A stretch of DNA of 64,000 nucleotides from Blastocatellia bacterium (GTDB taxonomy: Bacteria; Acidobacteriota; Blastocatellia; Pyrinomonadales; Pyrinomonadaceae), in NCBI GenBank assembly GCA_003168335.1, contig PMSM01000002.1, positions 248,001-312,000 on the forward strand, given 5' to 3'. Numbering within the stretch: the stretch's first letter is position 1; each line of letters starts with the position of its first letter. The translations under genes were made by a program, and so were the position numbers. Positions 25,973-62,779 of the stretch are shown one piece after another. Below the pieces are notes generated by a model. That model made no database searches and was not told the DNA's origin. It saw nothing but the letters and a program-made list of their open reading frames with translations.

Positions 25973-26060
25973 GTCAGTACCACCCGCGTGAGCTGGTGGA
26001 GTAAGGACTCAACGCGCCGGTTGCCCCCAAGATCCACCTGCTAACGCAGGTGGTACTGAC
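25973..26060. repeat. REPIN-like inverted repeat between divergent genes
   Basis: Arms GTCAGTACCACC (from 25973) and GGTGGTACTGAC (to 26060) enclose a perfect inner hairpin, CCACCTGC-TAAC-GCAGGTGG. The right arm ends three bases before the methyltransferase ATG at 26064, so the element forms that gene's leader. Confidence 0.85.
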
Positions 26061-26063
26061 CTC

Positions 26064-27107
26064 ATGGCGCAAGATGCGCGTGCCACCGACTTATGCGATA
26101 GTTACAATCGCTTGAAAGAAAAACTGCTGCAATATCTCTCATGCCCATCGTGCGCCGGCGCGATTACTCTGGTGTCCGCTGAGCGCGAAGGTGAGGAAAT
26201 CATCGGTGGTCAACTAACGTGCGCTTCATGCACGCGCGCATGGCCCATCGTGCGCGGCGTTCCGCGCTTTGCTTCGATCGAAGAGGTCGAAGAGGACAAA
26301 GCCGCGACCGCCGCCGGCTTCGGCTGGCAATGGACCCACTTTACTCAGATTGATGAGAAGTATGAAGAGCAGTTTCTTGGTTGGATCGCTCCGGTCACGC
26401 GCGAGTTCTTCAAAGATAAGGCCGTGCTCGAAGGTGGTTGCGGCAAAGGACGTCATACGCTACTGACCGCACAGTGGGGTGCGCGTGATGTGATCGGAAT
26501 TGACTTGAGCGCAGCAGTTGAAACTGCGTTCACAGCGACTCGTCATCTTCCGAACGCTCACATCGTCCAGGCTGACATTTACAATTTGCCGTTCGCCCGC
26601 GCGTTTGATTACGCGTTTTCGGTCGGCGTGTTGCATCACTTACCCGATCCGCGCGGCGGGTTCAAGTCACTGGCATCGAAGGTCAAACCCGGTGGCCACA
26701 TTTCGGCCTGGGTCTATGGCGCCGAGAACAACGAATGGATCACGCGCTGGGTAAACCCTCTGCGCGAGCGTCTGACCTCGCGCATGAACCCGCGGGCGCT
26801 ATTACAGCTTTCAAAAGTCCCAACTGCGGTTGTGTTCGCGGCGACCAGGCTAATCTATGGTCCACTTAACGCTTCGGCCGGTGGCGCTAAGCTGGCGCGG
26901 CATCTTTTTTACAACGACTATCTAAACGCGATCGCCGGCTTTGGCTGGCGAGAACAACACACCATCGTCTTTGATCACCTGGTGGCGCCCACGGCGTTCT
27001 ACATTTCCCGCGAAGAATTTGCCGAGTGGTGGCCAGAGATAGACGCACAAGATGTGACCATTAGCTGGCACAATCGCAATAGTTGGCGCGGATTTGGACG
27101 GATCTGA
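26064..27107 (+). CDS. SAM-dependent methyltransferase with N-terminal zinc ribbon
   Basis: A 347-residue protein: a Trm112-like zinc ribbon at about residues 26-70 (CPSC ... CASC, ending WPIVRGVPRF) followed by a class I SAM-binding domain (VLEGGCGKGRHTLL, then VIGIDLS, and FSVGVLHHLPDPRGGF at the substrate side). This arrangement is common in methyltransferases acting on small molecules, lipids or sugars linked to surface-polysaccharide genes; the target here is unknown. The start codon abuts a repeat element and no ribosome binding site is visible. Confidence 0.85.
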   Translation: MAQDARATDLCDSYNRLKEKLLQYLSCPSCAGAITLVSAEREGEEIIGGQLTCASCTRAWPIVRGVPRFASIEEVEEDKAATAAGFGWQWTHFTQIDEKYEEQFLGWIAPVTREFFKDKAVLEGGCGKGRHTLLTAQWGARDVIGIDLSAAVETAFTATRHLPNAHIVQADIYNLPFARAFDYAFSVGVLHHLPDPRGGFKSLASKVKPGGHISAWVYGAENNEWITRWVNPLRERLTSRMNPRALLQLSKVPTAVVFAATRLIYGPLNASAGGAKLARHLFYNDYLNAIAGFGWREQHTIVFDHLVAPTAFYISREEFAEWWPEIDAQDVTISWHNRNSWRGFGRI

Positions 27108-27216
27108 TTTGGAGTGCGGTGGCAAGCGCAGCGCGACACCGCTTTGGATCGTTTGCAATTGAGCCTCTCAATATCCAAAGCGCCGTCGCCGCGTCGCTCT
27201 GCCGGCGCACTCCAAA
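27108..27216. repeat. REPIN-like inverted repeat (TTTGGAGTGC family)
   Basis: TTTGGAGTGCGGTGGC directly after the methyltransferase stop is answered by GCCGGCGCACTCCAAA ending at 27216, with a second inner pair (CGCTTTGGAT and ATCCAAAGCG). Same family as 38891-39019 and 62721-62779. Confidence 0.85.
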
Positions 27217-27370
27217 TTCGTTGACGGCGCTTCCAGCGAACCGCTATGATGCTTGTGGTTTAAGGCGTTCGTGCCCAACCAAAGCTGACGCTTAGACCTC
27301 TCGGTTTCTTGCCCTTAACCCTCTCAAATTTTTTCGAGAAACCCGAAACGGAATTCCTACGAGTACTTCT

Positions 27371-28540: not shown

Positions 28541-28548
28541 AGTGGCAC

Positions 28549-28797
28549 AGACTTCAGGAAACTCTGATCAAGTACTTTCGACGCGTAGCGTCGGTATGAA
28601 TTTAGCCCGGCCTTTCAAGGCCGGGAAGGGGCAACGAGGTGTTCGCGTCGCGTAGCGACGCCTGAAACCAAGGGATTCAATCGTCGCTACGCGACGAGAA
28701 CAGAGACTAACCTGATCCCGGCGTTGAAACGCCGGGCTAAGTTCATGCGGACGCTACGCGTCCAAGACACTTAGTCAGAGGTTCCTTCAGTCTGTGA
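28549..28797. repeat. Large nested palindrome made of several REPIN families
   Basis: About 250 bp forms concentric inverted repeats: GGCACAGACTTCAGGAAACT pairs with AGGTTCCTTCAGTCTGTG on the outside, then CGACGCGTAGCGTC with GACGCTACGCGTC, then TTTAGCCCGGC with GCCGGGCTAA, and in the middle TCGCGTAGCGACG with CGTCGCTACGCGACG. It follows the pilT stop codon directly. The layers belong to different repeat families, as expected if one element inserted into another. Confidence 0.85.
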
Positions 28798-28810
28798 AGA
28801 CTGATACCCA

Positions 28811-28958
28811 TTTTCCATTTCTCATTTTTCATCTGCCATTGACGATTGAGGTTTAGAGTGCCGACTTTAGTCGGGTCTTTGTTGTTGCGAAAAGCCCAAC
28901 TGAAGTTGGTACTCTAAACACCGTCCTTGATGTGAAATGAAAAATGAGAAATGGAAAA
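28811..28958. repeat. Nested REPIN pair
   Basis: Outer arms TTTTCCATTTCTCATTTTTC and GAAAAATGAGAAATGGAAAA enclose a second complete element, GTTTAGAGTGCCGACTTTAG (28851) to GTTGGTACTCTAAAC (28919), with its own CCGACTTTAGTCGG hairpin. The two families occur separately elsewhere, so this is one element within another. Confidence 0.88.
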
Positions 28959-28982
28959 TGGATTCTGAATCCTGAACACGAA

Positions 28983-29874: not shown

Positions 29875-30009
29875 CGCTGGGAGCGCGGACGTCCCGTCCG
29901 CATTGAGCGCGGAGCGCGAACAACCGTGGACGATTTGGGACCTCAAGGTCCAAACGAATTGAGCTGGCTTCGCTCGCTCCGGCGGACCGGGACGTCCGCG
30001 CTCTCAGCG
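29875..30009. repeat. REPIN-like inverted repeat upstream of mazG
   Basis: CGCTGGGAGCGCGGACGTCC (from 29875) pairs with GGACGTCCGCGCTCTCAGCG (to 30009); the centre holds GGACCTCAAGGTCC. Same family as 14729-14819. It occupies the 370 bp gap between the divergent mazG and DUF1844 genes. Confidence 0.85.
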
Positions 30010-30766: not shown

Positions 30767-30794
30767 CAAGTTCGTTGGCAGCGGTCCGATTTTA

Positions 30795-30951
30795 TTTTCC
30801 ATTTCAAGTTTGCCATTGTTCATTTGCTGGATTTATTTCGCGTCGCTTCGTGGATCGTTCGCTTGACTGAAGAGTGAAGAACGATCCATGAAATCACCCG
30901 AACGGACAACAAAGAATAGCAAATGAAAGATGTCAAATGACAAATGGAAAA
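30795..30951. repeat. Nested REPIN pair
   Basis: Outer TTTTCCATTT (30795) and AAATGGAAAA (to 30951), as at 28811, enclose a GTGGATCGTTCGC/GAACGATCCATG inner element of the family also found at 44050-44235 and 50880-50944. It lies between the DUF1844 and PhnP-like genes. Confidence 0.82.
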
Positions 30952-30974
30952 TGAGCGGTTATTTCTAAGCTAAG

Positions 30975-31767: not shown

Positions 31768-31871
31768 TGCTCCCTTCTCCCTTTGGGAGAAGGGCTGGGG
31801 AAGAGGGGCATAGCTGATGACAGCGGAAGCCGTAAGCCCTCTCCCCAACCCTCTCCCAGGGGGAGAGGGAG
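31768..31871. repeat. CCCTCTCCC-type inverted repeat
   Basis: CCCTTCTCCCTTTGGGAGAAGGG and CCCTCTCCCAGGGGGAGAGGG are each self-complementary, and the two halves also pair with each other. This CCCTCTCCC/GGGAGAGGG type is widespread in unrelated bacterial genomes. It precedes ribF. Confidence 0.82.
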
Positions 31872-38890: not shown

Positions 38891-39019
38891 TTGGAGTGCG
38901 CCTTTGGATGTCCGACAAACTTCAGTTTGTCGACGCTCTTAGCTTCTGAACTTGAAACGACAAACTGAAGTTTGTCGGACATTGCGCCGTCCCCGCCTAG
39001 CTCTGCCGGCGCACTCCAA
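38891..39019. repeat. Nested REPIN pair
   Basis: Outer TTGGAGTGCG (38891) and GCACTCCAA (to 39019) enclose an inner element (38909-38982) with CGACAAACTTCAGTTTGTCG on the left and CGACAAACTGAAGTTTGTCG on the right, each a perfect hairpin. It fills the gap between the GNAT and lysozyme genes. Confidence 0.88.
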
Positions 39020-39023
39020 ACTG

Positions 39024-39830: not shown

Positions 39831-40065
39831 AGCGCCAAAGGCGCGAAATGCAAAAGCCTGGGGCAACGCCCCAGGTTAGATGTAAAGAGAAGATTCGCTT
39901 AGCGCTGAAGGCGCGAAATAGATCGGCATCCCATTAGTACTTTGGCTTAGCGGGGAACCAGATTATCGACTCTCTTATTTCGCTCCTTCAGAGCTGGGTT
40001 GACTCAGGTGGCGTGATCCTGGGCCGTTGGCCCAGGCTTTTGCATTTCGCACCTTCGGCGCTTAG
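39831..40065. repeat. Long nested inverted repeat upstream of RNase J
   Basis: About 235 bp: GCGCCAAAGGCGCGAAATGC and AAAGCCTGGGGCAACGCCCC on the left pair with GGGCCGTTGGCCCAGGC, TTTTGCATTTCGC and CCTTCGGCGC on the right. An inner pair, CTGAAGGCGCGAAATAGATC with TATTTCGCTCCTTCAG, lies between. Whether it belongs to the leader of the downstream RNase J message depends on the promoter position; TATACT at 40127-40132 is a possible -10 box below it. Confidence 0.82.
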
Positions 40066-43046: not shown

Positions 43047-43049
43047 TCT

Positions 43050-43146
43050 GATTTTAGATTTGTGATTTGCGATTGATCGTGTGGCATACTACGCCCTCGA
43101 ATCGCAAATCTCAGGTCTTCAAATCAAGAATCGCAAATCTAAAATC
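43050..43146. repeat. REPIN-like inverted repeat upstream of uppP
   Basis: GATTTTAGATTTGTGATTTG (43050) pairs with AGAATCGCAAATCTAAAATC (to 43146); the central part has GATTTGCGATT and AATCGCAAATC. It ends 11 bp before the uppP ATG at 43158 and follows the SDR stop by three bases. Confidence 0.85.
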
Positions 43147-43157
43147 GAGAATCACTA

Positions 43158-44036: not shown

Positions 44037-44049
44037 GAAGCCCAAGTCA

Positions 44050-44235
44050 TTTTCCATTTCTCATTTGACTCGATTCATTTGTCATTTGTGGGCCTCTGGT
44101 TCGTGTTCGTTCGTGTGATTTCGTGGATCGTTCTTCATGTGTCGGGCAAGCAAGCGATCCACGAAGTAACACGAAGCATCACGAAATGAGATCCACGAAA
44201 TGCCAAATGACCGTTGACAAATGAAGAATGGAAAA
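44050..44235. repeat. Nested REPIN pair upstream of recJ
   Basis: Outer TTTTCCATTTCTCATTTG (44050) and CAAATG...AATGGAAAA (to 44235) enclose GTGATTTCGTGGATCGTTC and GATCCACGAAGTAACACGAA, i.e. the same two families as at 30795. It fills the gap between uppP and recJ. Confidence 0.85.
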
Positions 44236-44276
44236 TCTCGTGGCTCTTCTGTCCAACAAGAAGTAGACTCCCACTG

Positions 44277-46014: not shown

Positions 46015-46102
46015 GTTTAGCGGCGGGCTACCGCCCGCCTTTTTTGTTATAGAGTAAGATTTAGCAGGCGCCAAAAGGGCGGGCGGTGGCCCGCCGCTAA
46101 AC
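46015..46102. repeat. REPIN-like inverted repeat (GTTTAG family)
   Basis: GTTTAGCGGCGGGCTACCGC (46015) and GCGGTGGCCCGCCGCTAAAC (to 46102) with hairpin GGCGGGC-TACC-GCCCGCC; the left half is also a transcription terminator. Same family as 48475, 55304, 57523 and 59009. Confidence 0.9.
46022..46045 (+). terminator. Rho-independent terminator formed by a REPIN half
   Basis: GGCGGGC (46022-46028) and GCCCGCC (46033-46039) pair around TACC, and TTTTTT follows immediately (46040-46045). It lies 12 bp after the recJ stop. The hairpin is the left half of the REPIN at 46015. Confidence 0.85.
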
Positions 46103-46117
46103 GAGCACGGGAACATA

Positions 46118-48474: not shown

Positions 48475-48531
48475 GTTTGGAGCGGGGCTACCGCCCCGCT
48501 TAGTTGGCGGGCAGTAGCCCGCCTCTAAAAC
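48475..48531. repeat. REPIN-like inverted repeat upstream of trpB
   Basis: GTTTGGAGCGGGGCTACCGC and GGCGGGCAGTAGCCCGCCTC, ending in CTCTAAAAC at 48531; hairpins GCGGGG-CTAC-CGCCCCGC-type on both halves. It ends 30 bp before the trpB ATG. Confidence 0.85.
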
Positions 48532-49793: not shown

Positions 49794-49985
49794 AGCCCGC
49801 AAAGCGGGCGGCATGTTAATAGCCCCGGGCGTGAGCCCGGGAAATCGAAGACCAGAACCGTGGTGAGCCCCGTCAGGGGCGACACACACACCGCGTCGCT
49901 TAGCTTGCTCATTTCTGCCGCCCGCTGCGCGGGCTTAGGATATTCTTAAGGACATCCAACCACGGGCTTACGCCCGTGGCTATTA
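49794..49985. repeat. Composite repeat array between trpB and trpA
   Basis: Several short palindromes in tandem: AGCCCGCAAAGCGGGC, CCCGGGCGTGAGCCCGGG, GCCCCGTCAGGGGC, GCCCGCTGCGCGGGC and CCACGGGCTTACGCCCGTGG, the first pairing with the fourth. It separates the two trp genes and runs to just before the trpA start region. Confidence 0.85.
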
Positions 49986-53624: not shown

Positions 53625-53911
53625 TCTACCATCCCGATGCTGAAAACGAACTAATCGAGGCAGCGCAATATTACGAAGGCCGCGTCGCGACGTTGGGCGT
53701 TCAATTTTTCAATGAAGCGGACCGAGCGGTTGCGGCGATTCTTGAAGCGCCTGAACGTTGGAAAATCATCGAGAAAGGTGTGCGCAGCTATTCGATGCCC
53801 CGCTTCCCTTACGCAGTCTACTATCGCGATTTTCCCGACCGTCTTCACATTCTTGCTTTCAAACATCACCGGCGACACCCTGATTACTGGCGATATCGCA
53901 TTTCTGAGTAA
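53615..53911 (+). CDS. ParE/RelE-superfamily toxin
   Basis: A 98-residue toxin: MRLIYHPDAENELIEAAQYY at the start, VRSYSMPRFPYAVYYR in the middle and LAFKHHRRHPDYWRYR at the end, the same family as the toxin at 20263-20553. The pair sits after two unknown small genes and before the amidohydrolase. Confidence 0.88.
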   Translation: MRLIYHPDAENELIEAAQYYEGRVATLGVQFFNEADRAVAAILEAPERWKIIEKGVRSYSMPRFPYAVYYRDFPDRLHILAFKHHRRHPDYWRYRISE

Positions 53912-53974
53912 AGCATTAACGCTTTACAGACCTTCGCATATCCCCGCATAATCCGCGCGGCCTGATATTAATTC

Positions 53975-55309
53975 ATGAGCGCATCGATTCTCATCAAAGG
54001 CGGCACTTTAGTGACGATGGACGAAAAAGATTCCATCGTGCGCGGCGATGTGTTGATTCGTGACGGGCGCATTGCTGAGATCGCCGGACATATTGAAGCT
54101 GGCGGGAGCGATGTGATCGACGCGGTAGGCTGTGCGGTGCTGCCGGGCTTTGTGCAGACACACTTGCATCTCTGTCAGACTTTGTTTCGCGGGGCGGCGG
54201 ACGATCTCTCTTTGATTGATTGGCTGAGAAAACGCGTGTGGCCGCTGGAAGCCGCGCACACGGCTGAATCAATTCGCGCCTCGGCGCGATTAAGTATCGC
54301 GGAGCTGATCAAGGGTGGCACGACCTGCGCGCTCACGATGGAAACCGTCAGACACACCGAAGAAGTTCTGCGCGTTGTCGAAGAAACCGGGTTCCGCGCC
54401 ACCGTCGGCAAGTGCATGATGGACAAGGGCGACGGTGTCCCCGCCGGGCTTTGCGAAAACACCAGCGAATCGATTCGTGAGTCGGTGGCGCTGATCGCAG
54501 AATGGCACGGACGCGCCGGCGGACGCGTGCGTTGTTGCTTCGCCCCGCGCTTCGCGATTAGCTGCACGCGCGAACTGTTAAGTGAGGTCTCGGAACTTTC
54601 AAAGAAGCATCAAGTGATGATCCACACGCACGCTGCTGAAAATAAAAACGAATGCGAGATTGTCGAAGGCGAGACTGGCCTGCGGAATGTTGCTTATCTC
54701 GATTCGCTGGGAATCTCGGGGACGCATGTGGTGCTCGCGCACTGTGTCCAGCTCGACGATGAAGAGATGGAAACGCTCGCGCGGACAAAGACGAACGTGG
54801 CGCACTGTCCGTCGTCGAATTTGAAACTCGGATCAGGCGTGGCGCGCATCACCGAAATGTTGTCGCGCGGGATCTCAGTTTCGCTGGGCGCGGACGGCGC
54901 TGCCTGCAACAACCGGCTCGACATGTTCACGGAAATGCGCACCGCGGCTTTGCTGCAGAAAGTTGTTCACGGCCCGGAGGCCCTGCCGGCAAAGCGCACT
55001 TTGCGGATGGCCACGATCGATGGGGCGCGGGCGCTGGGTCTGGAAAAGGAAATCGGCAGCCTCGAGACAGGCAAGCGCGCGGATGTGATCGTGGTCGATG
55101 TAGCTCAATTGCATTCGAGCCCGCGGCACGACGATGTGGTTTCAGCTTTGGTTTATTCGGCCGTCGCCGCAGACGTGCGGACCACAATAATTGACGGGCA
55201 AGTGTTGATGCTCGACGGCGAGTTGCTGGCGTTGGATGAAAGCGTCGTGATTGAGGAAGCGAATCGCGAAGCAGACGCATTGCGCGCGCGCGCTGGCATC
55301 TCGGTTTAG
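53975..55309 (+). CDS. Amidohydrolase, TRZ/ATZ or deoxyadenosine deaminase group
   Basis: A 444-residue amidohydrolase: the metal motif QTHLHLCQ at about 65, [15 protein letters not shown] and [12 protein letters not shown], and [15 protein letters not shown], the active-site aspartate region. This set and the [14 protein letters not shown] loop are typical of the chlorohydrolase/5'-deoxyadenosine deaminase (DadD/MtaD) branch, which deaminates adenosine-like compounds. The stop codon TAG (55307-55309) lies inside the left arm of a repeat element. Confidence 0.88.
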
Positions 55310-55371
55310 AGGCGGGCTACTGCCCGCCAGACATTTTGCGGAAGTCGGCGGGCGGTAGCCCGCCGCTAAAC
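55304..55371. repeat. REPIN-like inverted repeat providing the amidohydrolase stop
   Basis: GTTTAGAGGCGGGCTACTGC (55304) and GCGGTAGCCCGCCGCTAAAC (to 55371), hairpins GGCGGGC-TACT-GCCCGCC and GGCGGGC-GGTA-GCCCGCC. TAG in GTTTAG is the amidohydrolase stop, and ispE begins 14 bp after the right arm. Confidence 0.9.
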
Positions 55372-55384
55372 GTTTTCCTGACAG

Positions 55385-56317: not shown

Positions 56318-56320
56318 TGT

Positions 56321-56395
56321 TGGGGCGTCGCCAAGTGGTAAGGCACCGGTCTTTGGATCCGGCATTCGTAGGTTCGAATCCTTCCGCCCCAGCCA
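56321..56395 (+). tRNA. tRNA-Gln (anticodon TTG)
   Basis: A full cloverleaf: acceptor TGGGGCG pairs with CGCCCCA, D-arm GCC-AAGTGGTAA-GGC, anticodon loop CTTTGGA with anticodon TTG, T-arm around TTCGAAT, and an encoded CCA end. It starts three bases after the ispE stop. The CCGG stem with a U-U pair next to the loop is typical of bacterial tRNA-Gln. Confidence 0.95.
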
Positions 56396-56403
56396 ATTTT
56401 AGA

Positions 56404-56471
56404 AGTGGCACAGACTTCAGTCTGTGAGTTCGACCTCTGATCGATATGCACAGACTAAAGTCTGTGCCACT
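56404..56471. repeat. REPIN-like inverted repeat (AGTGGCACAGAC family)
   Basis: AGTGGCACAGACTTCAGTCT and AGACTAAAGTCTGTGCCACT (to 56471), with a CACAGACTTCAGTCTGTG hairpin. It ends five bases before the prs ATG. Same family as 59905-59970. Confidence 0.9.
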
Positions 56472-56476
56472 GACTA

Positions 56477-57424
56477 ATGGGTACGACCGGCGGCATCAAA
56501 ATCTTCTCCGGCACTGCGCATCGCGCCCTGGCCGACGAGATTTGTCACGAACTGGGTTGTGATCTGGGCAAAGCAACTGCGGCGCGCTTTTCCGACGGCG
56601 AGTTTAATTTTCAGGTCGAAGAGAATGTTCGTGGCGGCGATGTCTTCATCGTGCAGCCGACATGCCCGCCGACGGATGCGTATTTGATGGAGTTGCTGGT
56701 GATGCTCGACGCCTTTCGTCGTTCATCAGCCGGACGTCTCACCGCGGTGCTGCCATATTACGGTTACGGGCGTTCTGATAAGAAAGATCGGCCGCGGGTG
56801 CCGATTGCGGCGAAGATGGTCGCGAATCTGTTGACGACCGCCGGCGCCGATCGCATTGTGACAATGGATCTGCACGCGGCCCAGATTCAGGGGTTCTTTG
56901 ATATTCCGGTGGATCACTTGTATGCGGCGCCGGTCATGATTCGTTACTATCAGGAGCGGCCGCTGCCGGATTTGACCGTGGTTGCGCCGGACACGGGCGG
57001 AGCGGAACGGGCCCGCGCTTACGCGAAACGGTTGGATGCCGAACTCGCCCTTTGTGACAAGCGTCGCGACAAGCCCAATGTTGCCGAGGTGATGAACGTC
57101 GTCGGCGATGTGGAAGGTCGAAATTGTTTGATTGTCGACGACATGTGCGACACGGGCGGATCGCTGACCAAGGTTTCGCTGGCCTTAAAGCAAGCAGGCG
57201 CCGCACGTGTTGACGCGTGCTTCACCCATCCGGTACTGTCTGGACGTGCGGCACAGCATCTGGGAAACTCGGGAATTGAGCAGATCGTGGTGACGAACAC
57301 TATTCCGCTGAACGCAAAAGCAGCGGAACTGAAGAACATTAGAGTCTTAAGCATTGCGCCTCTTTTGGCGAAAGCGATCAAGTCGATCCACGAAGAGACC
57401 AGCGTCTCTTCGCTCTTTGTATAA
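56477..57424 (+). CDS. prs: Ribose-phosphate pyrophosphokinase
   Basis: A 315-residue PRPP synthetase: KIFSGTAHRALADEI near the start, RFSDGEFNFQVEENVRGGDV, the catalytic loop region YYGYGRSDKKDRPRVPI, DLHAAQIQGFFDIPVDHL, and the PRPP-binding block NCLIVDDMCDTGGSL. It makes PRPP for nucleotides, histidine and tryptophan. The start directly follows a REPIN and shows no ribosome binding site. Confidence 0.96.
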   Translation: MGTTGGIKIFSGTAHRALADEICHELGCDLGKATAARFSDGEFNFQVEENVRGGDVFIVQPTCPPTDAYLMELLVMLDAFRRSSAGRLTAVLPYYGYGRSDKKDRPRVPIAAKMVANLLTTAGADRIVTMDLHAAQIQGFFDIPVDHLYAAPVMIRYYQERPLPDLTVVAPDTGGAERARAYAKRLDAELALCDKRRDKPNVAEVMNVVGDVEGRNCLIVDDMCDTGGSLTKVSLALKQAGAARVDACFTHPVLSGRAAQHLGNSGIEQIVVTNTIPLNAKAAELKNIRVLSIAPLLAKAIKSIHEETSVSSLFV

Positions 57425-57463
57425 AAACTGGGCCTGATGGCGCAGTCAAACGAAGGGCAAAAA

Positions 57464-57574
57464 CTGAAAGCTAAGTAGCCGTCAACCCTCAGCTTTCAGC
57501 AAGACAATTTGAGTTGTGTCGGGTTTAGAAGCGGGCTACGGCCCGCTTGGTCGGGCGGTAGCCCGACTCTAAAC
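57464..57574. repeat. Two adjacent inverted repeats before rplY
   Basis: A short pair CTGAAAGCT/AGCTTTCAG (57464-57499) is followed by a GTTTAG-family element (57523-57574) with hairpins GCGGGC-TACG-GCCCGC and TCGGGC-GGTA-GCCCGA. It ends 34 bp before the rplY start. Confidence 0.85.
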
Positions 57575-57608
57575 GGGTGCGCGAGTTTTCTATTTTGGGA
57601 GAGCAATT

Positions 57609-58310
57609 ATGGCCGAGAAAAAAGACATTGTGGTGCGCGCCGTGCGGCGCGATGGTCGAGGAAAAAATGACGCGCGCCGGGCACGCCGCAACGGGCAAGT
57701 GCCGGTGACCATGTATGGCGGCGCGGGCGAGGCCGTGTCTGCGCTGGCGGAGTTACGCGACCTGGCGGCAATCCTGCGATCCGATACGGGCCGCAACACC
57801 ATCTTCACGCTCGACGTGGAAGGTGTCGAAGCTGCCGAGGTGATGTTTGCCGATCGGCAGATTCATCCGGTTCGCATGCGCTTGATCCATGCTGATTTCA
57901 AGCGACTGGTAAAAGGCGAGAAGATCGAAGCGACCGTACCGCTGCGTTTGATCGGAGAACCGATCGGCGTGCGCGAGCAGGCCGGAATGCTGGAGCAGAT
58001 CGTGCGCGAGGTTGAAATTCGTTGCGAGCCGCGCGAAATCCCCGAGGCCCTGGAAGTCGACGTCACAAATCTTGGGGTTCACGAAGTCCTGCACGTCTCA
58101 GACATTCCGATCGGCGAAGGGATTGAAATTCTGGAACCACCCGATACCGTGATTGCGACCGTCGGCGTGATTAAGGAAGAGGTGGTAGCCGTAGCGCCGG
58201 TTGAAGGCGAAGGGCTAGCCGAGCCGGAAGTAATCGGCAAGGGCAAGAAGGAAGACGAGGGCGAAGGCCCGGGCGCGGAAGAAAAAGAGAAAGAGAAAGA
58301 GAAGAAGTAA
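57609..58310 (+). CDS. rplY: Ribosomal protein L25 (Ctc family)
   Basis: A 233-residue L25/TL5 protein: the N-terminal 5S rRNA-binding domain (RRDGRGKNDARRARRNGQVP, then VTMYGG) and the C-terminal TL5 domain (VPLRLIGEPIGVREQAGMLEQ, EVLHVSDIPIGEGIEIL). A Glu/Lys-rich repeat tail (KEKEKEKK) is encoded by a short GAGAAA microsatellite. GGGAG lies seven bases upstream of the ATG. It is followed by pth, as in many genomes. Confidence 0.93.
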   Translation: MAEKKDIVVRAVRRDGRGKNDARRARRNGQVPVTMYGGAGEAVSALAELRDLAAILRSDTGRNTIFTLDVEGVEAAEVMFADRQIHPVRMRLIHADFKRLVKGEKIEATVPLRLIGEPIGVREQAGMLEQIVREVEIRCEPREIPEALEVDVTNLGVHEVLHVSDIPIGEGIEILEPPDTVIATVGVIKEEVVAVAPVEGEGLAEPEVIGKGKKEDEGEGPGAEEKEKEKEKK

Positions 58311-58314
58311 CGAG

Positions 58315-58425
58315 ATTGCCGATTTACGAATACCAATTGCCGATTGGCTATTGAAGCTGGGCCTTACGCTTCAGTCGGTGCCACGACATTGGTAGGTTTC
58401 ATTCGGCAAGCGGCAATTGGCAATG
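58315..58425. repeat. REPIN-like inverted repeat overlapping the pth start
   Basis: ATTGCCGATT ... CCAATTGCCGATTGG on the left pairs with GGCAAGCGGCAATTGGCAAT on the right; the inner part has GAAGC-TGGGCCTTAC-GCTTC. The right arm runs into the pth start codon (ATG at 58423). Confidence 0.8.
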
Positions 58426-59004
58426 CATTTGATTGTTGGACTCGGTAATCCGGGCAGTGAATACGAGTGGACCCGGCACAACGTCGGTTTCATGCTCATT
58501 GATAAGTTGGCCGCCGATGCAGGCGTGACGGTGAAGCGACGTGAATGTCGTTCACTGGTAGGGAGCGGGGTAATCGAAGGCGAGCGGTTAAGGCTGGTAA
58601 AGGCGCAGACCTTCATGAATTTGAGCGGCGAAGCCGTCGCTTGTCTGGTCGCAAAAGGCGAACCGGGTGAAGTCGGCAAATCGCTAATTGTCCTTAGTGA
58701 CGACCTCGCCTTGCCCTTCGGAACGATTCGCTTGCGCGCCCGCGGCAGCGCCGGCGGGCACAATGGTTTGAAGTCGATCATCGCGGCGTTGGGGACCAAC
58801 GAGTTCATCCGCCTACGGATCGGAATTCAGCCTGATCATCCGGTGAGCGAGGCCAGGAAGTTTGTTCTGGATGAATTTGCGCCGGCGGAAAGACGCGCAT
58901 TGAAAGAGATTCTGGATCGTAGCGCCGACGCAGTGCGCACGGTTTTGCGAGAGGGCATCGTGAAAGCGATGTCGCTGTACAAACAGGGAATCGAAAACGC
59001 TTAG
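58423..59004 (+). CDS. pth: Peptidyl-tRNA hydrolase
   Basis: A 193-residue enzyme that releases stalled peptidyl-tRNA: IVGLGNPGSEYEWTRHNVGF (catalytic His in TRHN), KAQTFMNLSGEAV with the Asn, LSDDLALPFGTIRLRARGSAGGHNGLKSI. ATG 58423 is chosen; its ribosome binding site is masked by a repeat arm. Confidence 0.95.
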   Translation: MHLIVGLGNPGSEYEWTRHNVGFMLIDKLAADAGVTVKRRECRSLVGSGVIEGERLRLVKAQTFMNLSGEAVACLVAKGEPGEVGKSLIVLSDDLALPFGTIRLRARGSAGGHNGLKSIIAALGTNEFIRLRIGIQPDHPVSEARKFVLDEFAPAERRALKEILDRSADAVRTVLREGIVKAMSLYKQGIENA

Positions 59005-59008
59005 TTTT

Positions 59009-59070
59009 GTTTGGCTGGCGGACTTTCTCCGCCAGACCTGGTCGCAGCCGGACAAATCCGGCTTCTAAAC
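59009..59070. repeat. REPIN-like inverted repeat between pth and rpsF
   Basis: GTTTGGCTGGCGGACTTTCT and AATCCGGCTTCTAAAC (to 59070), with hairpins GGCGGA-CTTTC-TCCGCC and GCCGGA-CAAA-TCCGGC. The rpsF ribosome binding site begins two bases later. Confidence 0.85.
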
Positions 59071-59082
59071 TGGAGGTTGAAG

Positions 59083-59496
59083 TTGGCGGAAAAAAGAACT
59101 TACGAAGTGGTTTTCATCATTGACCCCGGGGCGGGCGATGATGAAGTAATGCGGCTCAGCGAAGGCGTGCAGAAAATCATCACCGGACAGGGCGGCAGCA
59201 TTACCAAGACCGAAGTCATGGGAAAGCGGCAGCTCGCCTATGAAATCAATCACAAGAAGGACGGCACCTACGTGCTGCTGGAGGTGGAAGGGTCGGGCGC
59301 TGAAATTGCCGAGTTGGAACGGCGCATGCGCGTTAACGACCAGATTCTCCGGTACATGACCATCCGGGTGGATGAGGATCGGCAGCGCGCAGACAAACTT
59401 AAAGAACGGCGCGCGCGCAAGGCAGCTCGAAAGACTGGATTGAAGAACAAAGGGAGCGCTGCGAGTTCCGGCTCGGGCCCCGGGGCTGAAGATTAA
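59083..59496 (+). CDS. rpsF: Ribosomal protein S6
   Basis: A 137-residue S6: RTYEVVFIIDPGAGDDEVMRL, then TKTEVMGKRQLAYEINHKKDGTYVLLEVEG and the ILRYMTIRVDED strand. It starts at TTG 59083, with GGAGG six bases upstream, giving the family N-terminus; a longer frame lies in the repeat. The C-terminal Lys/Arg/Gly-rich tail is longer than in E. coli. Followed by rpsR and rplI, the usual order, with no ssb between. Confidence 0.94.
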   Translation: MAEKRTYEVVFIIDPGAGDDEVMRLSEGVQKIITGQGGSITKTEVMGKRQLAYEINHKKDGTYVLLEVEGSGAEIAELERRMRVNDQILRYMTIRVDEDRQRADKLKERRARKAARKTGLKNKGSAASSGSGPGAED

Positions 59497-59601
59497 GCAG
59501 GTCAAGCGACTTTGCTGGTCGCCAGCGTGTCGTTGACTCGGCGGGAAACTCTTTGAGAAGGATCTCGAAGTTCGCCGGTGGATGGATAGAAGGGAAAGAA
59601 T

Positions 59602-59898
59602 ATGTCATCAAACTACGAAGAGCGCGAAAACTCATACGGATTTGAGCGCGAATACGAAAGACCCATGCCGGGTCGCGGCGGTCGCCGCATGATGCGGCGG
59701 AAGATTTGCCGGTTTTGCATCGAAAAGGTCGATCTGATCGACTTTAAAGATGTGAAGCTCCTGCAGTCTTATATTCCTGAGCGCGGCAAGATCCTGCCGC
59801 GGCGCATCTCGGGAGCTTGTGCTGCACACCAGAGCATGCTGGCCGAAGCGATCAAGCGCGCGCGCAACATCGCGCTACTGCCTTATGCGGCCGACTGA
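59602..59898 (+). CDS. rpsR: Ribosomal protein S18
   Basis: A 98-residue S18: [21 protein letters not shown], then [22 protein letters not shown] and [13 protein letters not shown]. The N-terminus carries an extra Gly/Arg-rich region ([12 protein letters not shown]). AGGG lies about 10 bases before the ATG. Confidence 0.95.
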
Positions 59899-59904
59899 GT
59901 TTAG

Positions 59905-59970
59905 AGTGGCACAGACTTTCGGTCTGTGATCTCGAGCCGAAGAAACCACAGACCGAAAGTCTGTGCCACT
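59905..59970. repeat. REPIN-like inverted repeat between rpsR and rplI
   Basis: AGTGGCACAGACTTTCGGTC (59905) and GACCGAAAGTCTGTGCCACT (to 59970), the family of 56404, preceded by GTTTAG. It lies 24 bp before the rplI start. Confidence 0.9.
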
Positions 59971-59994
59971 GTTGATTAAGGGGAGTTCATCGAA

Positions 59995-60564
59995 ATGTCA
60001 CATAAACAGGTTCTATTACGGGAAGATATCGATAATCTGGGCGCCCGCGGTGAGATTGTGCGCGTCAAGGCGGGTTACGCGCGAAATTATTTGTTGCCAA
60101 GAAATCTCGCGGTCGAAGCCACTTCCAACAATCTCCGGCAGATTCAAGGTGAGCGCGCGGCGCTGGCAAAGCGCGAGGCGAAGGATCGCTCGTCGGCAGA
60201 ATTACAAGCCGCCGCATTGCGCAGCCTGGCGTTGAAGTTCGAACGAAGAATCGGCGAAGCCGGCGTGCTCTACGGTTCAGTGACGTCGATGGACATTGCC
60301 CACGCGTTGAAAGAGCAGGGCTATGAAATCGATCGCCGGCGCATAGTCTTACGCGAGCCTATCAAGCGATTCGGCAATTATGAGGTGCCCGTGCGTTTGC
60401 ACCGCGACGTGACGGTCGAATTGCCCGTGAGCGTTCTGGGCGAAGGCGGCGTTGAGATTAACATAGCGGCGCTGGATGAAGACGCCGGCGGCGAAGGTGC
60501 TGCAAAACAAGCGCCGGCGAGGGAAGCGACGGCGCCAGGCGAAGAATCCGCAACGGACGAATAA
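59995..60564 (+). CDS. rplI: Ribosomal protein L9
   Basis: A 189-residue L9: QVLLREDIDNLGARGEIVRVKAGYARNYLLPRNLA at the start (the L9 signature), a long connecting helix (ALRSLALKFERRI) and the C-terminal rRNA domain (LYGSVTSMDIAHALKEQGYEIDRRRI). The Ala/Glu-rich tail is an extension of about 40 residues. GGGGAG lies 10 bases before ATG. Confidence 0.95.
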   Translation: MSHKQVLLREDIDNLGARGEIVRVKAGYARNYLLPRNLAVEATSNNLRQIQGERAALAKREAKDRSSAELQAAALRSLALKFERRIGEAGVLYGSVTSMDIAHALKEQGYEIDRRRIVLREPIKRFGNYEVPVRLHRDVTVELPVSVLGEGGVEINIAALDEDAGGEGAAKQAPAREATAPGEESATDE

Positions 60565-60584
60565 CGTTAGAAGAACCGGTCAAC

Positions 60585-60695
60585 GAGCCTGCGCAGCAGG
60601 CGAAAGAGTTTAGCCCAGGGTGAAGCGAGCAAAGCGAGCGGAACCCTGGGTACAAACCGTTAAAGAATTCAAGCCCGCTTTAGCGGGCGACAGAC
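60585..60695. repeat. Composite repeat array after rplI
   Basis: GCCTGCGCAGCAGGC, then CCCAGGGTGAAGCGAGC followed by GCTCGC-like GAGCGGAACCCTGGG, then GCCCGCTTTAGCGGGC; three adjacent palindromes. It fills most of the 290 bp gap before the next gene. Confidence 0.85.
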
Positions 60696-60855
60696 GTAGT
60701 TGTTTATGAGTCTGTCGCTCGGAAAGGCGGGCATCTTTGATCCTATTTTCCTGGCTGCGGATATAACCCAAGGTGAAATTGGTAAACGTTCTCCAGGGAT
60801 AAGACTTTGTGCTATACGTTTTCGGTCCGAAAGACGAGCGCACGGAGGAATTGCA

Positions 60856-61047
60856 ATGGCGGCTTGGATCGTTATCTTGGGAATTGGAGGCTTTGTTATC
60901 TATGAGCTCGATAGTCTCATTGATAGTTTCACGGAGCTCAATGTGGGACGGGCTTGGCTGCGACTAAAGTTTGCACGGGATAACAAGCGATTAGTAAAAA
61001 CCCGCCACGCAAAGCGCCCGGCGCGAAGGAAACAGGTGAAAAATTAG
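60856..61047 (+). CDS. 63-residue membrane protein
   Basis: A short protein, MAAWIVILGIGGFVIYELDS then a basic tail KRPARRKQVKN. One membrane segment. GGAGG seven bases before the ATG at 60856 is a strong ribosome binding site, and the longer frame upstream has no support. It is located between rplI and dnaB. No family recognised. Confidence 0.62.
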   Translation: MAAWIVILGIGGFVIYELDSLIDSFTELNVGRAWLRLKFARDNKRLVKTRHAKRPARRKQVKN

Positions 61048-61266
61048 ATGTCATGGTTTCTCCACCATGTTGTTGAAGTTCCGTGCCGCATACAAATTAC
61101 TGCGCCGGGCGTAACTATTTCGGCGATCTCCTTCTTGGAGATAAAACCTAACGTGCGGTTCAGTAGTTAACGAGTTGCAGTTACCTTGTAGTATATTCCG
61201 CACTCCTACAAACTAAATCTTCGAGCGGATTCGCATTCGTTGCGATGAAATCTCAGTTCTTATTCA

Positions 61267-62694
61267 ATGGCAACGCCAAATCCCATTCGCGATCCGCTTC
61301 TAGAACGTCCTTTACCAAGCAGCCCTGACACTGAGCGCGCGATATTGGGTTCAATCCTCCTTGATAATTCGCTGATTGCCCAGGCCGTTGAGTTATTGAA
61401 GCCCGAGAACTTCTATGTACCATCGCACCGACGCATTTTCATGGCGATGATTGCTCTGTTCGAAAGGGGCTCGGAGATTGATCACGTTTTGATTGGTGAA
61501 GAACTGCGTCGGGACAACTCCCTTGAGTCTGCGGGAGGGATGCTCTTCCTAAGCAACTTGCCGTTCGGCCTTCCTCGTGTAACAAGTCTCGTTCAATACT
61601 CAAAAGTTGTTCGCGGGAAACATCTGATGCGCCAACTGGTCAAGGTCGCGAACAAGATCACCGCTGAGGCGTTGGAAGAAGAAGATGAACCGCAGCACAT
61701 TCTGGATCATGCCGAGCATGCGATTTTCGCGCTGGCCGACGAGCGCATTCGGCAGGGTTTCGAGCACATCAAGCACGCGGCGGAACGCGTGCTGGAAAAG
61801 GCCGAAGCCGTCGAGCATCGGGACATGGTGGTTACCGGCGTGGCTACCGGTTTTCGCGGGCTCGACGCGTTGACTTCGGGTTTCCAGAAGCAGGATCTCG
61901 TGGTAATCGCGGCGCGGCCTTCGATGGGCAAGACCAGCCTGGCGCTGACCTTGGCCCAGCACGCGGCGATTGAAGGTAAGGCGGTCGTCGGGATATTTTC
62001 GCTGGAAATGTCAGCGGAAGCGCTGGCGATGCGCATGCTTTGCTCGGAAGCCAGCGTGGACGCGCAAAAGTTCCGCAGCGGCTACCTCTCCAACGAAGAA
62101 TGGTCACGTCTGGGCAAGGCGCTGGGCAAACTTGCCGATGCGCGGATCTTTATTGATGATACCGCAGCGATATCGGTGCTTGAGATGCGCGCAAAAGCGC
62201 GGCGGCTGGCAACAGAACAGAAGCAGCTCGACATGATCGTGGTTGATTACCTGCAACTTATGTCCGGTTCGTCGAACCGTTTTGAGTCGCGGCAACAGGA
62301 AGTCTCGCAAATTTCGCGCGAGCTGAAAGCCCTGGCCAAAGAATTGAACATCCCGATGGTTGCGCTCTCACAATTATCGCGCGCGCCTGAGAACCGCACC
62401 GACCACCGGCCGCAGCTTGCTGACCTGCGCGAATCGGGTGCGATCGAACAGGACGCCGACGTGGTGGCGTTCATCTATCGTGAAGAGCAGTACCACAAGA
62501 GCGATGAGAACAAGAACATCGCCGAACTGATCGTGGCCAAGCAACGCAACGGCCCCACCGACACTGTCTATCTCGCGTTCCTGAATCAGTTCGCCAAATT
62601 TGCCGACCTTGATCGAGATGCGCTGGGCTCTTATCTCGCCAGGTTCGATCGTTCCAAGGGCTCGCCACGAATCGCCCGCGGTGATGAGTTCTAG
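61267..62694 (+). CDS. dnaB: Replicative DNA helicase
   Basis: A 475-residue hexameric helicase: the N-terminal domain (DTERAILGSILLDNSLI, FYVPSHRRIFMAM), then the RecA-like motor: Walker A RPSMGKTSLALTLA, ALEMSAEAL-type FSLEMSAEALAMRMLCSEA, MIVVDYLQLMSG (Walker B), ALSQLSRAPENRTDHRP and SGAIEQDADVVAFIYREEQY. No intein is present. Order rplI, dnaB, alr is conserved in many bacteria. Confidence 0.97.
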   Translation: MATPNPIRDPLLERPLPSSPDTERAILGSILLDNSLIAQAVELLKPENFYVPSHRRIFMAMIALFERGSEIDHVLIGEELRRDNSLESAGGMLFLSNLPFGLPRVTSLVQYSKVVRGKHLMRQLVKVANKITAEALEEEDEPQHILDHAEHAIFALADERIRQGFEHIKHAAERVLEKAEAVEHRDMVVTGVATGFRGLDALTSGFQKQDLVVIAARPSMGKTSLALTLAQHAAIEGKAVVGIFSLEMSAEALAMRMLCSEASVDAQKFRSGYLSNEEWSRLGKALGKLADARIFIDDTAAISVLEMRAKARRLATEQKQLDMIVVDYLQLMSGSSNRFESRQQEVSQISRELKALAKELNIPMVALSQLSRAPENRTDHRPQLADLRESGAIEQDADVVAFIYREEQYHKSDENKNIAELIVAKQRNGPTDTVYLAFLNQFAKFADLDRDALGSYLARFDRSKGSPRIARGDEF

Positions 62695-62720
62695 AATCTC
62701 CCCTATTACCAGTCAACAAA

Positions 62721-62779
62721 TTTGGAGTGCGGCGACTTGTCGCCGCTTTTAAAAGCGCTGACAAGTCAGCGCACTCCAC
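62721..62779. repeat. REPIN-like inverted repeat between dnaB and alr
   Basis: TTTGGAGTGCGGCGACTTGT (62721) and GACAAGTCAGCGCACTCCA (to 62779), hairpins GCGAC-TT-GTCGC and GCTGAC-AA-GTCAGC. Same family as 27108 and 38891. Confidence 0.88.

What the first reader, a model, noticed from the sequence alone, without database searches (positions are those of the whole stretch)
25973..62779. Dense population of REPIN-like bipartite inverted repeats
Seen directly: nearly every intergenic space from about 26 kb onward, and a few earlier, holds a 55-250 bp element made of two short perfect hairpins in opposite orientation inside longer complementary arms. At least six arm families can be told apart: GTTTAG/CTAAAC, TTTGGAGTGC, AGTGGCACAGAC, TTTTCCATTT, GTGGATCGTTC and GCTGGGA. 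The hairpin stems vary in sequence between members while both halves of one element agree, so structure seems to be kept by compensatory change or by copying of one half. This is the architecture of REPINs mobilised by RAYT (Y1 REP-associated) transposases. No such transposase lies in the window. The density (about 28 in 64 kb) and number of co-existing families are unusual.
Basis: partly seen in the sequence, partly recalled or inferred. Interest (0 to 1): 0.7.

Follow-up and report, generated by a model that had tools for sequence, protein, structure and literature searches.

The report
Three mobile-repeat kinds share these gaps
The gaps between genes here are packed with remnants of three kinds of tiny jumping DNA; two belong to known single-strand-DNA transposases, and the third, whose ends are short words repeated in mirror image, turns out to surround two widespread bacterial genes of unknown function in many phyla.

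Summary
In detail: window plus a 400-kb sample of its genome has 93 inverted-arm elements against 2 and 8 in Markov controls. The REPIN reading fits most families, not all. (1) GTTTAG, TTTGGAGTGC, GTGGCACAGAC and GTCAGTACC arms flank Y1/RAYT genes elsewhere in the genome; GCTGGGA-type arms flank one in a congener. (2) Other elements are gene-less relatives of subclass-1.2 TnpA_Y1 genes, a subclass published as lacking REPs; 22 of 24 such loci have matched hairpin ends, and Rfam's 'Acido-Lenti-1 sRNA' is such an end. (3) TTTTCCATTT and GTGGATCGTTC arms are not REPs but tandem 7- to 10-bp words in inverted arms. In coding form such arms enclose one gene: 23S-IVS/four-helix-bundle (PF05635; 117 of 141 loci, many phyla) or the GxxExxY nuclease (PF13366; 24 of 26). 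Two copies in one genome match over just arm-ORF-arm (447 bp, 95%), with unrelated flanks and pN/pS 0.08; congeners show filled, gene-less, solo-arm and empty sites. Kind 3 looks like an undescribed transposase-less mobile element that could explain heptanucleotide repeats. How it moves is inferred only.

The parts
10726..10828 (.). Periodic-arm element, GxxExxY type, gene-less: ATCCACAGATTACGCAGATT ... CGCGTAATCTGCGGAT
   Evidence: read by eye; word shared with the own-genome GxxExxY gene L195 (ATCCGCAGATTACACAGATT) and gene-less copies L029:19521, L033:1089; not found by the scan
14729..14819 (.). F7 REPIN-like element, GCTGGGA..CGCGGACG arms, degenerate
   Evidence: F7-like REPINs flank a RAYT in congener G004 (L089)
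25968..26065 (.). F6 REPIN, ATGARGTCAGTACC arms
   Evidence: same arms flank the Y1 gene at G000:C1:31017 (L022)
27108..27216 (.). F5 REPIN, TTTGGAGTGCG arms
   Evidence: same arms flank Y1 genes L020 and L021
28541..28796 (.). F4 outer arms (CACAGACTTCAG, right end incomplete) enclosing a subclass-1.2 type double-hairpin element (CGTCGCG .. TTTAGCCCGGC)
   Evidence: inner type flanks the Y1 gene at C13:438980 (L015)
28808..28961 (.). Periodic-arm (7-bp) element CCATTTTCCATTTCTCATTT, gene-less, enclosing a GTTTAGAGTGCC-ACTT (F2) REPIN at 28851-28919
   Evidence: lag 7, score 26; F2-like arms flank a Y1 gene in congener G004 (L113)
29875..30009 (.). F7 element, CGCTGGGAGCGCGGACG arms
   Evidence: F7-like REPINs flank a RAYT in G004 (L089)
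30794..30952 (.). Composite periodic-arm element: outer 7-bp type (ATTTTCCATTT), inner TTCGTGGATCGTTC type at 30837-30902; gene-less
   Evidence: not found by the scan
31772..31869 (.). Two CCCTCTCCC hairpins, not assigned to any family
38891..39020 (.). F5 REPIN with an F3 element (ATGTCCGACAAACTTCAG, 38908-38982) inside it
   Evidence: no Y1 gene found for F3
39831..40062 (.). Gene-less subclass-1.2 TnpA_Y1 element (AGCGCCAAAGGCGCGAAATG + AAAAGCCTGGGGC hairpin); its left arm is an Rfam Acido-Lenti-1 hit
   Evidence: same ends flank the Y1 gene at C14:770283 (L009)
43049..43154 (.). Periodic-arm (7-bp) element GATTTTAGATTTGTGATTTGCGATT, gene-less; same word at the orthologous gap of congener G003
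44042..44243 (.). Composite periodic-arm element: 7-bp outer arms, 10-bp TTCGTGGATCG inner arms; gene-less
   Evidence: score 35
46015..46102 (.). F1 REPIN, GTTTAGCGGCGGGC arms; F1 also at the orthologous gap of congener G005
   Evidence: same arms flank the RAYT at C8:359975 (L018)
48475..48530 (.). F1 REPIN, diverged; F1 also at the orthologous gap in G005
49817..49985 (.). Gene-less subclass-1.2 element (TAATAGCC-hairpin ends); right end is an Rfam Acido-Lenti-1 hit (49960-50005)
   Evidence: similar ends flank L010 and L012
50876..50948 (.). Periodic-arm element GATCCACGAA .. TTTCGTGGATCG (GxxExxY type), gene-less
   Evidence: word CCACGAA/CACGAA as in GxxExxY loci L184, L198; not found by the scan
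55304..55371 (.). F1 REPIN; F1 also at the orthologous gap in G005
56404..56471 (.). F4 REPIN, AGTGGCACAGACTTCAG arms, after tRNA-Gln; F4 also at the orthologous gap in G005
57523..57574 (.). F1 REPIN; the orthologous gap in G005 holds a periodic-arm element instead
58333..58420 (.). Weak periodic-arm (7-bp) element CCAATTGCCGATTGG; the orthologous gap in G005 holds an F2 REPIN
59905..59970 (.). F4 REPIN; one half only at the orthologous gap in G005
62721..62778 (.). F5 REPIN; the orthologous gap in G005 holds a TGATTCA periodic tract instead

Best explanation
The population is a mixture of non-autonomous mobile elements of three kinds. Kind 1: REPINs, pairs of REP hairpins in opposite orientation, each family served in trans by its own class-2 Y1 HUH transposase (TnpA_REP/RAYT) that cuts and rejoins single-stranded DNA at the hairpin foot. 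Kind 2: gene-less relatives of subclass-1.2 TnpA_Y1 elements, whose ends are double hairpins. Kind 3: periodic-arm elements, in coding form about 440-630 bp: an upstream arm of about 30 bp made of 7- to 10-bp words, one short ORF (23S-IVS/four-helix-bundle, or GxxExxY PD-(D/E)XK nuclease), and the inverted arm downstream; the window copies have lost the ORF. Shown: arms, gene content, gene-specific words, a bias to the strand of both neighbouring genes, and for the four-helix-bundle type one pair of near-identical copies with unrelated flanks plus presence/absence among congeners. Inferred: that the encoded protein recognises the words of its own arms and drives copying (of a hairpin-forming single strand or a transcript), that gene-less copies move in trans, and that the ORF is expressed from host-operon transcription.
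For: Kind 1: 14 PF01797 matches in the genome plus two more loci found with NF047646; window arms flank them. NCBIfam names C8:359975, C1:347591 and C9:518372 REP-associated tyrosine transposases above the cut-off, C14:83432 below it, C1:31017 not at all. F4: 24 exact pairs genome-wide, 0 for the control pattern. Kind 2: 7 open own genes plus one with an in-frame stop carry Y---Q--HH; 22 of 24 subclass-1.2 loci have matched flanks above the 95th percentile of mismatched pairs (medians 27.5 and 9). Kind 3: PF05635 flanks matched in 25 of 30, 60 of 79 named loci, 117 of 141 over all sets, upstream arm G>C in 109 and C>G in 5 of the 117; PF13366 24 of 26. Control: of 2982 positions of the own genome with the same geometry one passes IR >=14 with lag-7 >=9 on both sides, and it is a PF05635 gene; three reach IR >=18: that one, the own GxxExxY gene (L042) and one unexplained (L032). 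447-bp arm-ORF-arm duplicate, unrelated flanks; 14 synonymous, 4 non-synonymous changes. Filled, gene-less, solo-arm and empty states around nuoI in 7 congeners. Gene-less copies of the own GxxExxY word in sample and window.
Against: No movement was observed. For kind 3 one near-identical within-genome pair was seen, no target duplication was defined, and no GxxExxY duplicate with unrelated flanks was found among the loci compared. Protein-word correlation (rho 0.156 overall; 0.32 within genomes, 1 of 2000 permutations) may be co-inheritance. No sense-strand G-U wobble excess in the arms (153 sense, 187 antisense), so no sign that RNA pairing is selected. 24 of 141 PF05635 loci lack matched arms by this test, own L143 among them; of six GxxExxY genes on plasmids only two show clear arms. 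GxxExxY upstream arms show no G/C polarity (11 G>C, 9 C>G, 3 ties). Ends with an 8-bp period (GGGGTCAGGCCTGCGATTTTTGCGATT) also flank one Y1 gene (C14:83432), so periodic ends are not exclusive to kind 3. F3 has no Y1 gene in any locus examined; F2, F7 and F8 only in congeners, F2 and F8 by similar, not identical, arms. No own-genome coding copy shares the window's CATTTTCC word. Several loci are orthologs or neighbours, so counts are not independent.
Confidence: 0.8

Rival explanations
1. All elements are REPINs/REPs of RAYTs, the TTTTCCATTT and GTGGATCGTTC families included; their RAYTs are missing from the assembly or extinct.
For: The genome carries many Y1 genes with diverse ends; RAYTs of F2 and F7 are missing here but present in congeners; one Y1 gene has ends with an 8-bp period; the assembly has 14 contigs and is 96.6% complete.
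Against: Arms of these two families have no apical hairpins with a foot; they are tandem words. The same architecture encloses PF05635 and PF13366 genes in 117 of 141 and 24 of 26 loci.
Confidence: 0.07
2. Heptanucleotide arms arise locally by polymerase slippage (7 nt has been proposed as the length that favours slippage), and inverted arms are kept alike by template switching; PF05635 and PF13366 genes merely tolerate or use them.
For: Arms differ in word and length from locus to locus, and arms of one locus agree, as slippage plus quasi-palindrome correction would give. Passages of PMC4679880 report the slippage proposal.
Against: Does not explain why inverted periodic arms in the own genome centre on two gene families, the 447-bp duplicate with unrelated flanks, or the fixed G-rich/C-poor polarity of PF05635 arms (109 to 5).
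Confidence: 0.12
3. Ordinary operon genes whose inverted arms are regulatory sites or RNA hairpins (for example RNase III processing sites or binding sites of a regulator), not mobile.
For: PF05635 genes lie on the strand of both neighbours in 48 of 64 named loci and 21 of 25 relatives with clear neighbours; Geobacter paired hepta/octanucleotide repeats were read as regulator sites (PMC2700814 passages); RNase III cuts the Coxiella IVS stem (PMC4990558 passages).
Against: Presence/absence, gene-less and solo-arm states at one locus in a genus; sparse copy number that varies from 0 to 17 per genome; no G-U excess; near-identical copies at two unrelated sites.
Confidence: 0.1
4. Ordinary intrinsic terminators.
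For: A few elements match the terminator pattern, e.g. 46022-46039 and 59965-59947.
Against: Terminator-like sites in 44000-63500: 33 against 25.1 (sd 4.8) in shuffles, and most listed sites lie outside the elements; copies share arms genome-wide and flank transposase genes.
Confidence: 0.02

Closest known systems
REPIN/REP with RAYT (TnpA_REP), class 2 of Quentin et al. 2018 (PMC6006769, sections 12 and 15 part 1 read)
   Same: Paired hairpins in opposite orientation with a conserved foot; families tied to their own Y1 gene; intergenic, multi-copy.
   Different: Feet are GTTTAG, GTGG, GTGC, GTACC rather than only GT[AG]G; eight or more families coexist, several RAYTs are broken or missing here and intact in congeners.
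TnpA_Y1 subclass 1.2 (PMC6006769)
   Same: Y---Q--HH motif, short protein, low copy number.
   Different: The paper's table gives REP 'no' and Cyanobacteria/Bacteroidetes; here 22 of 24 loci have matched double-hairpin ends and gene-less copies exist.
Acido-Lenti-1 RNA (Rfam RF01687; PMC2864571, one table passage seen)
   Same: Window hits 39831-39875 and 49960-50005 and hits beside 7 of 20 subclass-1.2 loci.
   Different: Rfam lists it as an sRNA; the position and inverted pairing around Y1 genes say it is the end of a transposable element.
23S rRNA intervening sequence (IVS) with S23 ORF, Leptospira/Coxiella (PMC4990558, passages seen)
   Same: PF05635 ORF, terminal inverted repeats; the Coxiella IVS has a 28-bp stem and tandem heptameric repeats before the ORF, and its origin as a mobile element had been suggested.
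   Different: Here the unit is dispersed outside rRNA genes, each copy with its own word on both arms, in many phyla, with gene-less forms.
Heptanucleotide repeats: cyanobacterial STRRs (recalled), TAACTGA repeats of Beggiatoaceae (PMC4679880, passages), Geobacter paired repeats (PMC2700814, passages)
   Same: Tandem 7-8-bp words in intergenic DNA; in Geobacter paired on opposite strands.
   Different: No owner gene was named in the passages seen; here the arrays are the arms of PF05635 genes, in four of six cyanobacterial plasmid loci plainly so.
Diversity-generating retroelement protein Avd
   Same: Weak profile match of one own PF05635 protein to bAvd and DivGenRetAVD (below curated cut-off for the latter).
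   Different: No reverse transcriptase or template repeat was looked for or seen beside the loci.

Membership tests
REPIN/RAYT | Two REP hairpins in inverted orientation, many copies, intergenic | tested here: met
   F1-F8 pairs in 464 kb: 9, 4, 7, 4, 10, 8, 5, 2, control 0 each
REPIN/RAYT | A Y1 gene of the REP-associated class flanked by the same arms | tested here: met
   Own genome: F1, F5, F6 (the F6 protein has no NCBIfam match), F4 as broken gene/remnant; congeners only: F2, F7, F8; none for F3
REPIN/RAYT | Canonical GT[AG]G foot | tested here: inconclusive
   GTGG in F4; GTTTAG, GTGC, GTACC feet elsewhere, read by eye
REPIN/RAYT (TTTTCCATTT and GTGGATCGTTC families) | Foot plus apical hairpin in each half; linked Y1 gene | tested here: not met
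   Arms are tandem 7-10-bp words; no linked Y1 gene in the loci examined
TnpA_Y1 subclass 1.2 | Y---Q--HH motif in an IS200-like short protein | tested here: met
   7 open genes and one with a stop, read; two tested proteins match NF033573
TnpA_Y1 subclass 1.2 | No REP-like flanks (as published) | tested here: not met
   22 of 24 loci with matched hairpin flanks
23S rRNA IVS | PF05635 ORF between inverted arms | tested here: met
   117 of 141 loci
23S rRNA IVS | Inserted in a 23S rRNA gene and excised from the transcript by RNase III | not tested
   Neighbouring ORFs were seen at most loci; rRNA context was not searched; excision needs RNA data
Mobile genetic element (kind 3) | Copies at unrelated sites with boundaries at the arms | tested here: met
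   L305/L307, one pair only
Mobile genetic element (kind 3) | Occupied and empty orthologous sites | tested here: met
   nuoI locus, 7 genomes, read by eye
Mobile genetic element (kind 3) | Protein shown to mobilise the unit | not testable with these tools
   needs experiment
PD-(D/E)XK nuclease (GxxExxY) | Conserved D ... E-x-K | tested here: met
   D71, E81, K83 invariant in 20 aligned proteins

The most novel reading that the evidence does not exclude
Inverted arrays of short words with either a four-helix-bundle (23S-IVS/S23) gene or a GxxExxY nuclease gene between them are one new class of transposase-less mobile element, found across bacterial phyla and some archaea. The protein recognises its own word, so each gene carries its own address on both arms. 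The heptanucleotide repeats known from cyanobacteria and other groups, and the 23S rRNA intervening sequences, are arms, relics or rRNA-borne members of this class.
Probability: 0.45. Interest if true: 0.9.

Novelty: new variant of a known kind. Interest (0 to 1): 0.8.

Why it matters
It gives an owner to repeats that were noticed for decades without one: passages of PMC4679880 ask for the protein that binds heptanucleotide repeats, and Geobacter's paired arrays were assigned to an unidentified regulator (PMC2700814 passages). It also gives a setting to two large protein families of unknown function and makes a prediction that can be tested at once: each protein should bind the word of its own arms. 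Separately, an Rfam sRNA family is reassigned to transposon ends, and a TnpA_Y1 subclass thought to lack REPs is shown to have its own hairpin families. For the window it means that one bacterial genome carries at least eleven palindromic families plus periodic-arm elements competing for the same gaps.

Tried and rejected
RNA-level maintenance of the periodic arms: no excess of sense-strand G-U pairs (153 against 187 antisense). Within-element copying of REPIN halves as a general rule: not seen for F1, F3, F4, seen for F6. Terminators. Rfam on 20 RAYT, PF05635 and GxxExxY loci: no hit. A Y1 gene for F3: not found in the loci examined; its pair pattern is in 3 of 7 congeners. GxxExxY on plasmids for other phyla: 8 records, 6 examined, arms clear in 2. 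A solved structure for GxxExxY: none at E <= 1; PF05635 matches 2gsc and 2rld. Structure prediction was not run. Lag-7 tracts that stay unpaired: window 18252-18285 and L034:18095.

Literature: nine searches gave no paper, in the listings seen, that links PF05635 or GxxExxY genes to periodic arms in general. The exception is Coxiella: PMC4990558 (passages) reports heptameric repeats and terminal inverted repeats in one IVS. The library lacks most subscription papers, so this is not proof of absence.

Dropped rows: five of 35 PF05635 loci, four of 30 PF13366 loci and one of 80 named loci had cut flanks; one search also left out L239, L250, L254, cut loci and four duplicates; one search left out loci with a stop in the match. 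Loci were the best-scoring ones returned, and the named set was found through one motif (S[IV][PMA][AS]NIAEG; best 80 of 581), so it is not a random sample. Some loci are orthologs or near neighbours.

Full report
What is there. The window is C13:248001-312000 of an unnamed 5.16-Mb genome in 14 contigs. Inverted-arm elements are far above chance: 16 in the window against 0-2 in five controls, and 93 in window plus sample (464 kb) against 2 and 8. The sample is 20 stretches of 20 kb, so genome-wide figures are extrapolations. Eleven arm families with a fixed sequence give 57 inverted pairs in 464 kb and none in a control, about 630 if the sample is typical. Genes around the window elements include recJ, an LPS-transport gene, tRNA-Gln, prs, ribosomal L9 and dnaB.

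Kind 1, REPINs. The genome has 14 PF01797 matches and two more loci found with NF047646. Their flanks carry window arms: GTTTAG-GCGGGC at C8:359975, TTTGGAGTGCG at C9:518372 and C9:589049, GTCAGTACC at C1:31017. GTGGCACAGAC-type arms flank a broken RAYT at C7:525240, in diverged form, and a RAYT remnant at C14:380754 between intact arms; a congener has a RAYT frame between such arms (L099). Arms like the second GTTTAG family, GCTGGGA and CAGTAGCCCGACC flank Y1 genes in congeners, the first and last by similarity only. TGTCCGACAAACT has none. So families outlive their transposase genes in this genome. Y1 genes occur in 35 of 40 relatives and RAYT-type genes in 7 of 7 genomes of the genus.

Orthologous gaps in congener G005 keep F1 at 46015, 48475 and 55304 and F4 at 56404, half of it at 59905. 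Other gaps hold a different family or none. Elements are therefore both inherited and replaced.

Kind 2. Eight Y1 genes of the genome (one with an in-frame stop) carry the Y---Q--HH motif that Quentin et al. give for subclass 1.2, with REP 'no' in their table (PMC6006769, sections 12 and 15 part 1). In 22 of 24 loci of this type, own and relatives, the flanks match as inverted copies above the 95th percentile of mismatched pairs. The ends are two hairpins, the second after a TAG-like foot. Gene-less versions are 39831-40062, 49817-49985 and the inner part of 28541-28796. Rfam calls two of these ends Acido-Lenti-1 RNA; 7 of 20 subclass-1.2 loci have such hits, and in L010, L015 and L057 they lie on both sides of the gene in opposite orientation. 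Twenty loci of the other kinds have none.

Kind 3. The remaining window families have arms built of tandem words. Lag 7 leads all lags from 4 to 30 in the 464 kb: 12 tracts of score >=14 against 0 in a second-order control; lags 6 and 14 have 7 each. Most lag-7 tracts are paired with an inverted partner. A scan for inverted arms that are periodic gives 20 places (lag 7: 7, lag 9: 6, lag 10: 3, lag 6: 4) against 0 and 0 in controls; a few of the 20 are other families or coding sequence.

In sample stretch L024 two such pairs enclose a short ORF each. Both are PF05635, 23S rRNA intervening-sequence or four-helix-bundle proteins. The genome has five PF05635 genes, none in the window; four pass the arm test and L143 does not. 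PF05635 occurs in 51 of 60 relatives, 0 to 17 per genome. With complete flanks, 25 of 30 loci have matched arms above the 95th percentile of mismatched pairs (18; median 24 against 9).

A scan of named genomes gave 80 loci from many phyla, including Bacteroidota, Chloroflexota, Bacillota, Nitrospirota, Planctomycetota, Proteobacteria, Gemmatimonadetes, candidate-phyla bacteria and Methanophagales archaea. Of 79 testable, 60 pass the 95th percentile (14) and 39 the 99th (20); among the 60 the arm period is 7 in 49, 8 in 8, 9 in 1. Over all sets 117 of 141 pass, and 36 of 40 in a set taken from five genomes. The upstream arm is G-rich and C-poor in 109, the reverse in 5. The same geometry slid over the own genome passes once in 2982 positions at the double threshold, at a PF05635 gene. 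At IR >=18 it passes three times: that gene, the own GxxExxY gene, and one place in L032 that I cannot explain.

From memory I suspected that GxxExxY genes (PF13366, PD-(D/E)XK nuclease fold by family name) carry similar arms, and tested it. They occur in 29 of 40 relatives; 24 of 26 loci have matched arms (medians 24.5 and 10, 95th percentile 16), with 8-9-bp words such as CCACAGAGGACACAGAG, CCGCAGATTACGCAGATT and CCACGAACAAACACGAA. The window's TTCGTGGATC and CAGATTACGCAGATT elements use such words, the latter shared with the own gene L195. D71, E81 and K83 are invariant in 20 aligned proteins. On plasmids only 2 of 6 GxxExxY loci show clear arms, whereas four of six cyanobacterial PF05635 loci have plain heptanucleotide arms, among them genes sitting between cas6 and cas4 and between ribonucleotide reductase genes.

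Mobility of kind 3. In genome G056 two copies on different contigs are 94.9% identical over 447 bp that begin and end in the arms; DNA outside is unrelated. The ORF starts directly after the upstream arm and its stop codon lies in the downstream arm; 14 synonymous and 4 non-synonymous differences give pN/pS 0.08, so the protein is under selection. Around nuoI in seven congeners the upstream gap holds a PF05635 unit (G000, G001, G005), a lone arm (G004, G006) or nothing (G002, G003). The downstream gap holds a PF05635 unit (G000, G002, G004), a gene-less periodic pair of another word (G003, G006) or a kind-2-like element (G001, partly unread, and G005) (read by eye).

Mechanism. Words vary with the protein: similarity of words and proteins correlates (rho 0.156 overall, none of 500 permutations; 0.32 within genomes, 1 of 2000). 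That fits recognition of the word by the protein but also simple co-inheritance. Genes lie on the strand of both neighbours in 48 of 64 named loci (opposite to both in 4) and in 21 of 25 relatives (0 opposite to both); ordinary operon genes would show such a bias too. I infer a promoterless ORF read from the host operon, with the G-rich upstream arm as a possible ribosome-binding region. The related Xanthomonas S23 protein is a homopentamer (PMC4990558 passage; PDB 2gsc matched). A ring that reads several tandem words is an attractive but untested model. Whether the copying intermediate is a folded single strand or a transcript is open; arms show no G-U excess.

Comparison with the known. The Coxiella 23S IVS has a 28-bp terminal stem and heptameric repeats before its S23 ORF, and a mobile origin had been suggested (PMC4990558, passages). 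Geobacter's paired hepta/octanucleotide arrays were read as regulator sites (PMC2700814, passages), and heptanucleotide repeats were called the commonest class, perhaps through polymerase slippage (PMC4679880, passages). What is added here is the common rule: arms on both sides, a gene-specific word, two gene families, gene-less forms and duplicated units. I found no statement of it in nine literature searches of an open-access library.

Verdict. Its REPIN reading holds for most families, with the refinement that part belong to subclass 1.2. Two of its six families are something else, and that part is the most interesting.

Noticed in passing
window 39831-39875 (-) and 49960-50005 (+); L010, L015, L057: Rfam Acido-Lenti-1 'sRNA' hits are the terminal double hairpins of subclass-1.2 TnpA_Y1 elements.
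   Followed up: yes
L117 (C14:379754-381918): A RAYT C-terminal fragment lies between intact GTGGCACAGAC repeats, a fossil that ties family F4 to a lost transposase.
   Followed up: partly
L017 (C14:82232-85258) and L121: A 324-aa Y1 gene with a C-terminal extension has ends GGGGTCAGGCCTGCGATTTTTGCGATT, like published TIRYT ends with GGGGWSAS (PMC3733652 section 16), with an 8-bp period; a gene-less copy is in L033:1769.
   Followed up: partly
window 30794-30952 and 44042-44243: Both have CATTTTCC arms outside and TTCGTGGATC arms inside, in the same order, as if one composite had spread; 28808-28961 encloses a REPIN instead.
   Followed up: no
L342, L344, L345: PF05635 genes sit between cas6 and cas4 in two cyanobacterial plasmids and between cas10 and a cmr3-like gene in a third.
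   Followed up: no
L324-L330 (nuoI locus of seven congeners): The two gaps beside nuoI are hit by three different element kinds in one genus, a natural test bed for insertion-site work.
   Followed up: partly
window about 53395-53912: Two short overlapping reading frames look by eye like an antitoxin and a RelE/ParE-type toxin; no search was run.
   Followed up: no
window 31772-31869: A CCCTCTCCC...GGGAGAGGG hairpin pair; I recall similar hairpins in many bacteria; not assigned.
   Followed up: no
window 18252-18285: A 7-bp periodic tract (CCTCTGACCTCTGATCTCCG) without an inverted partner within 3 kb, within the span of a long ORF.
   Followed up: no
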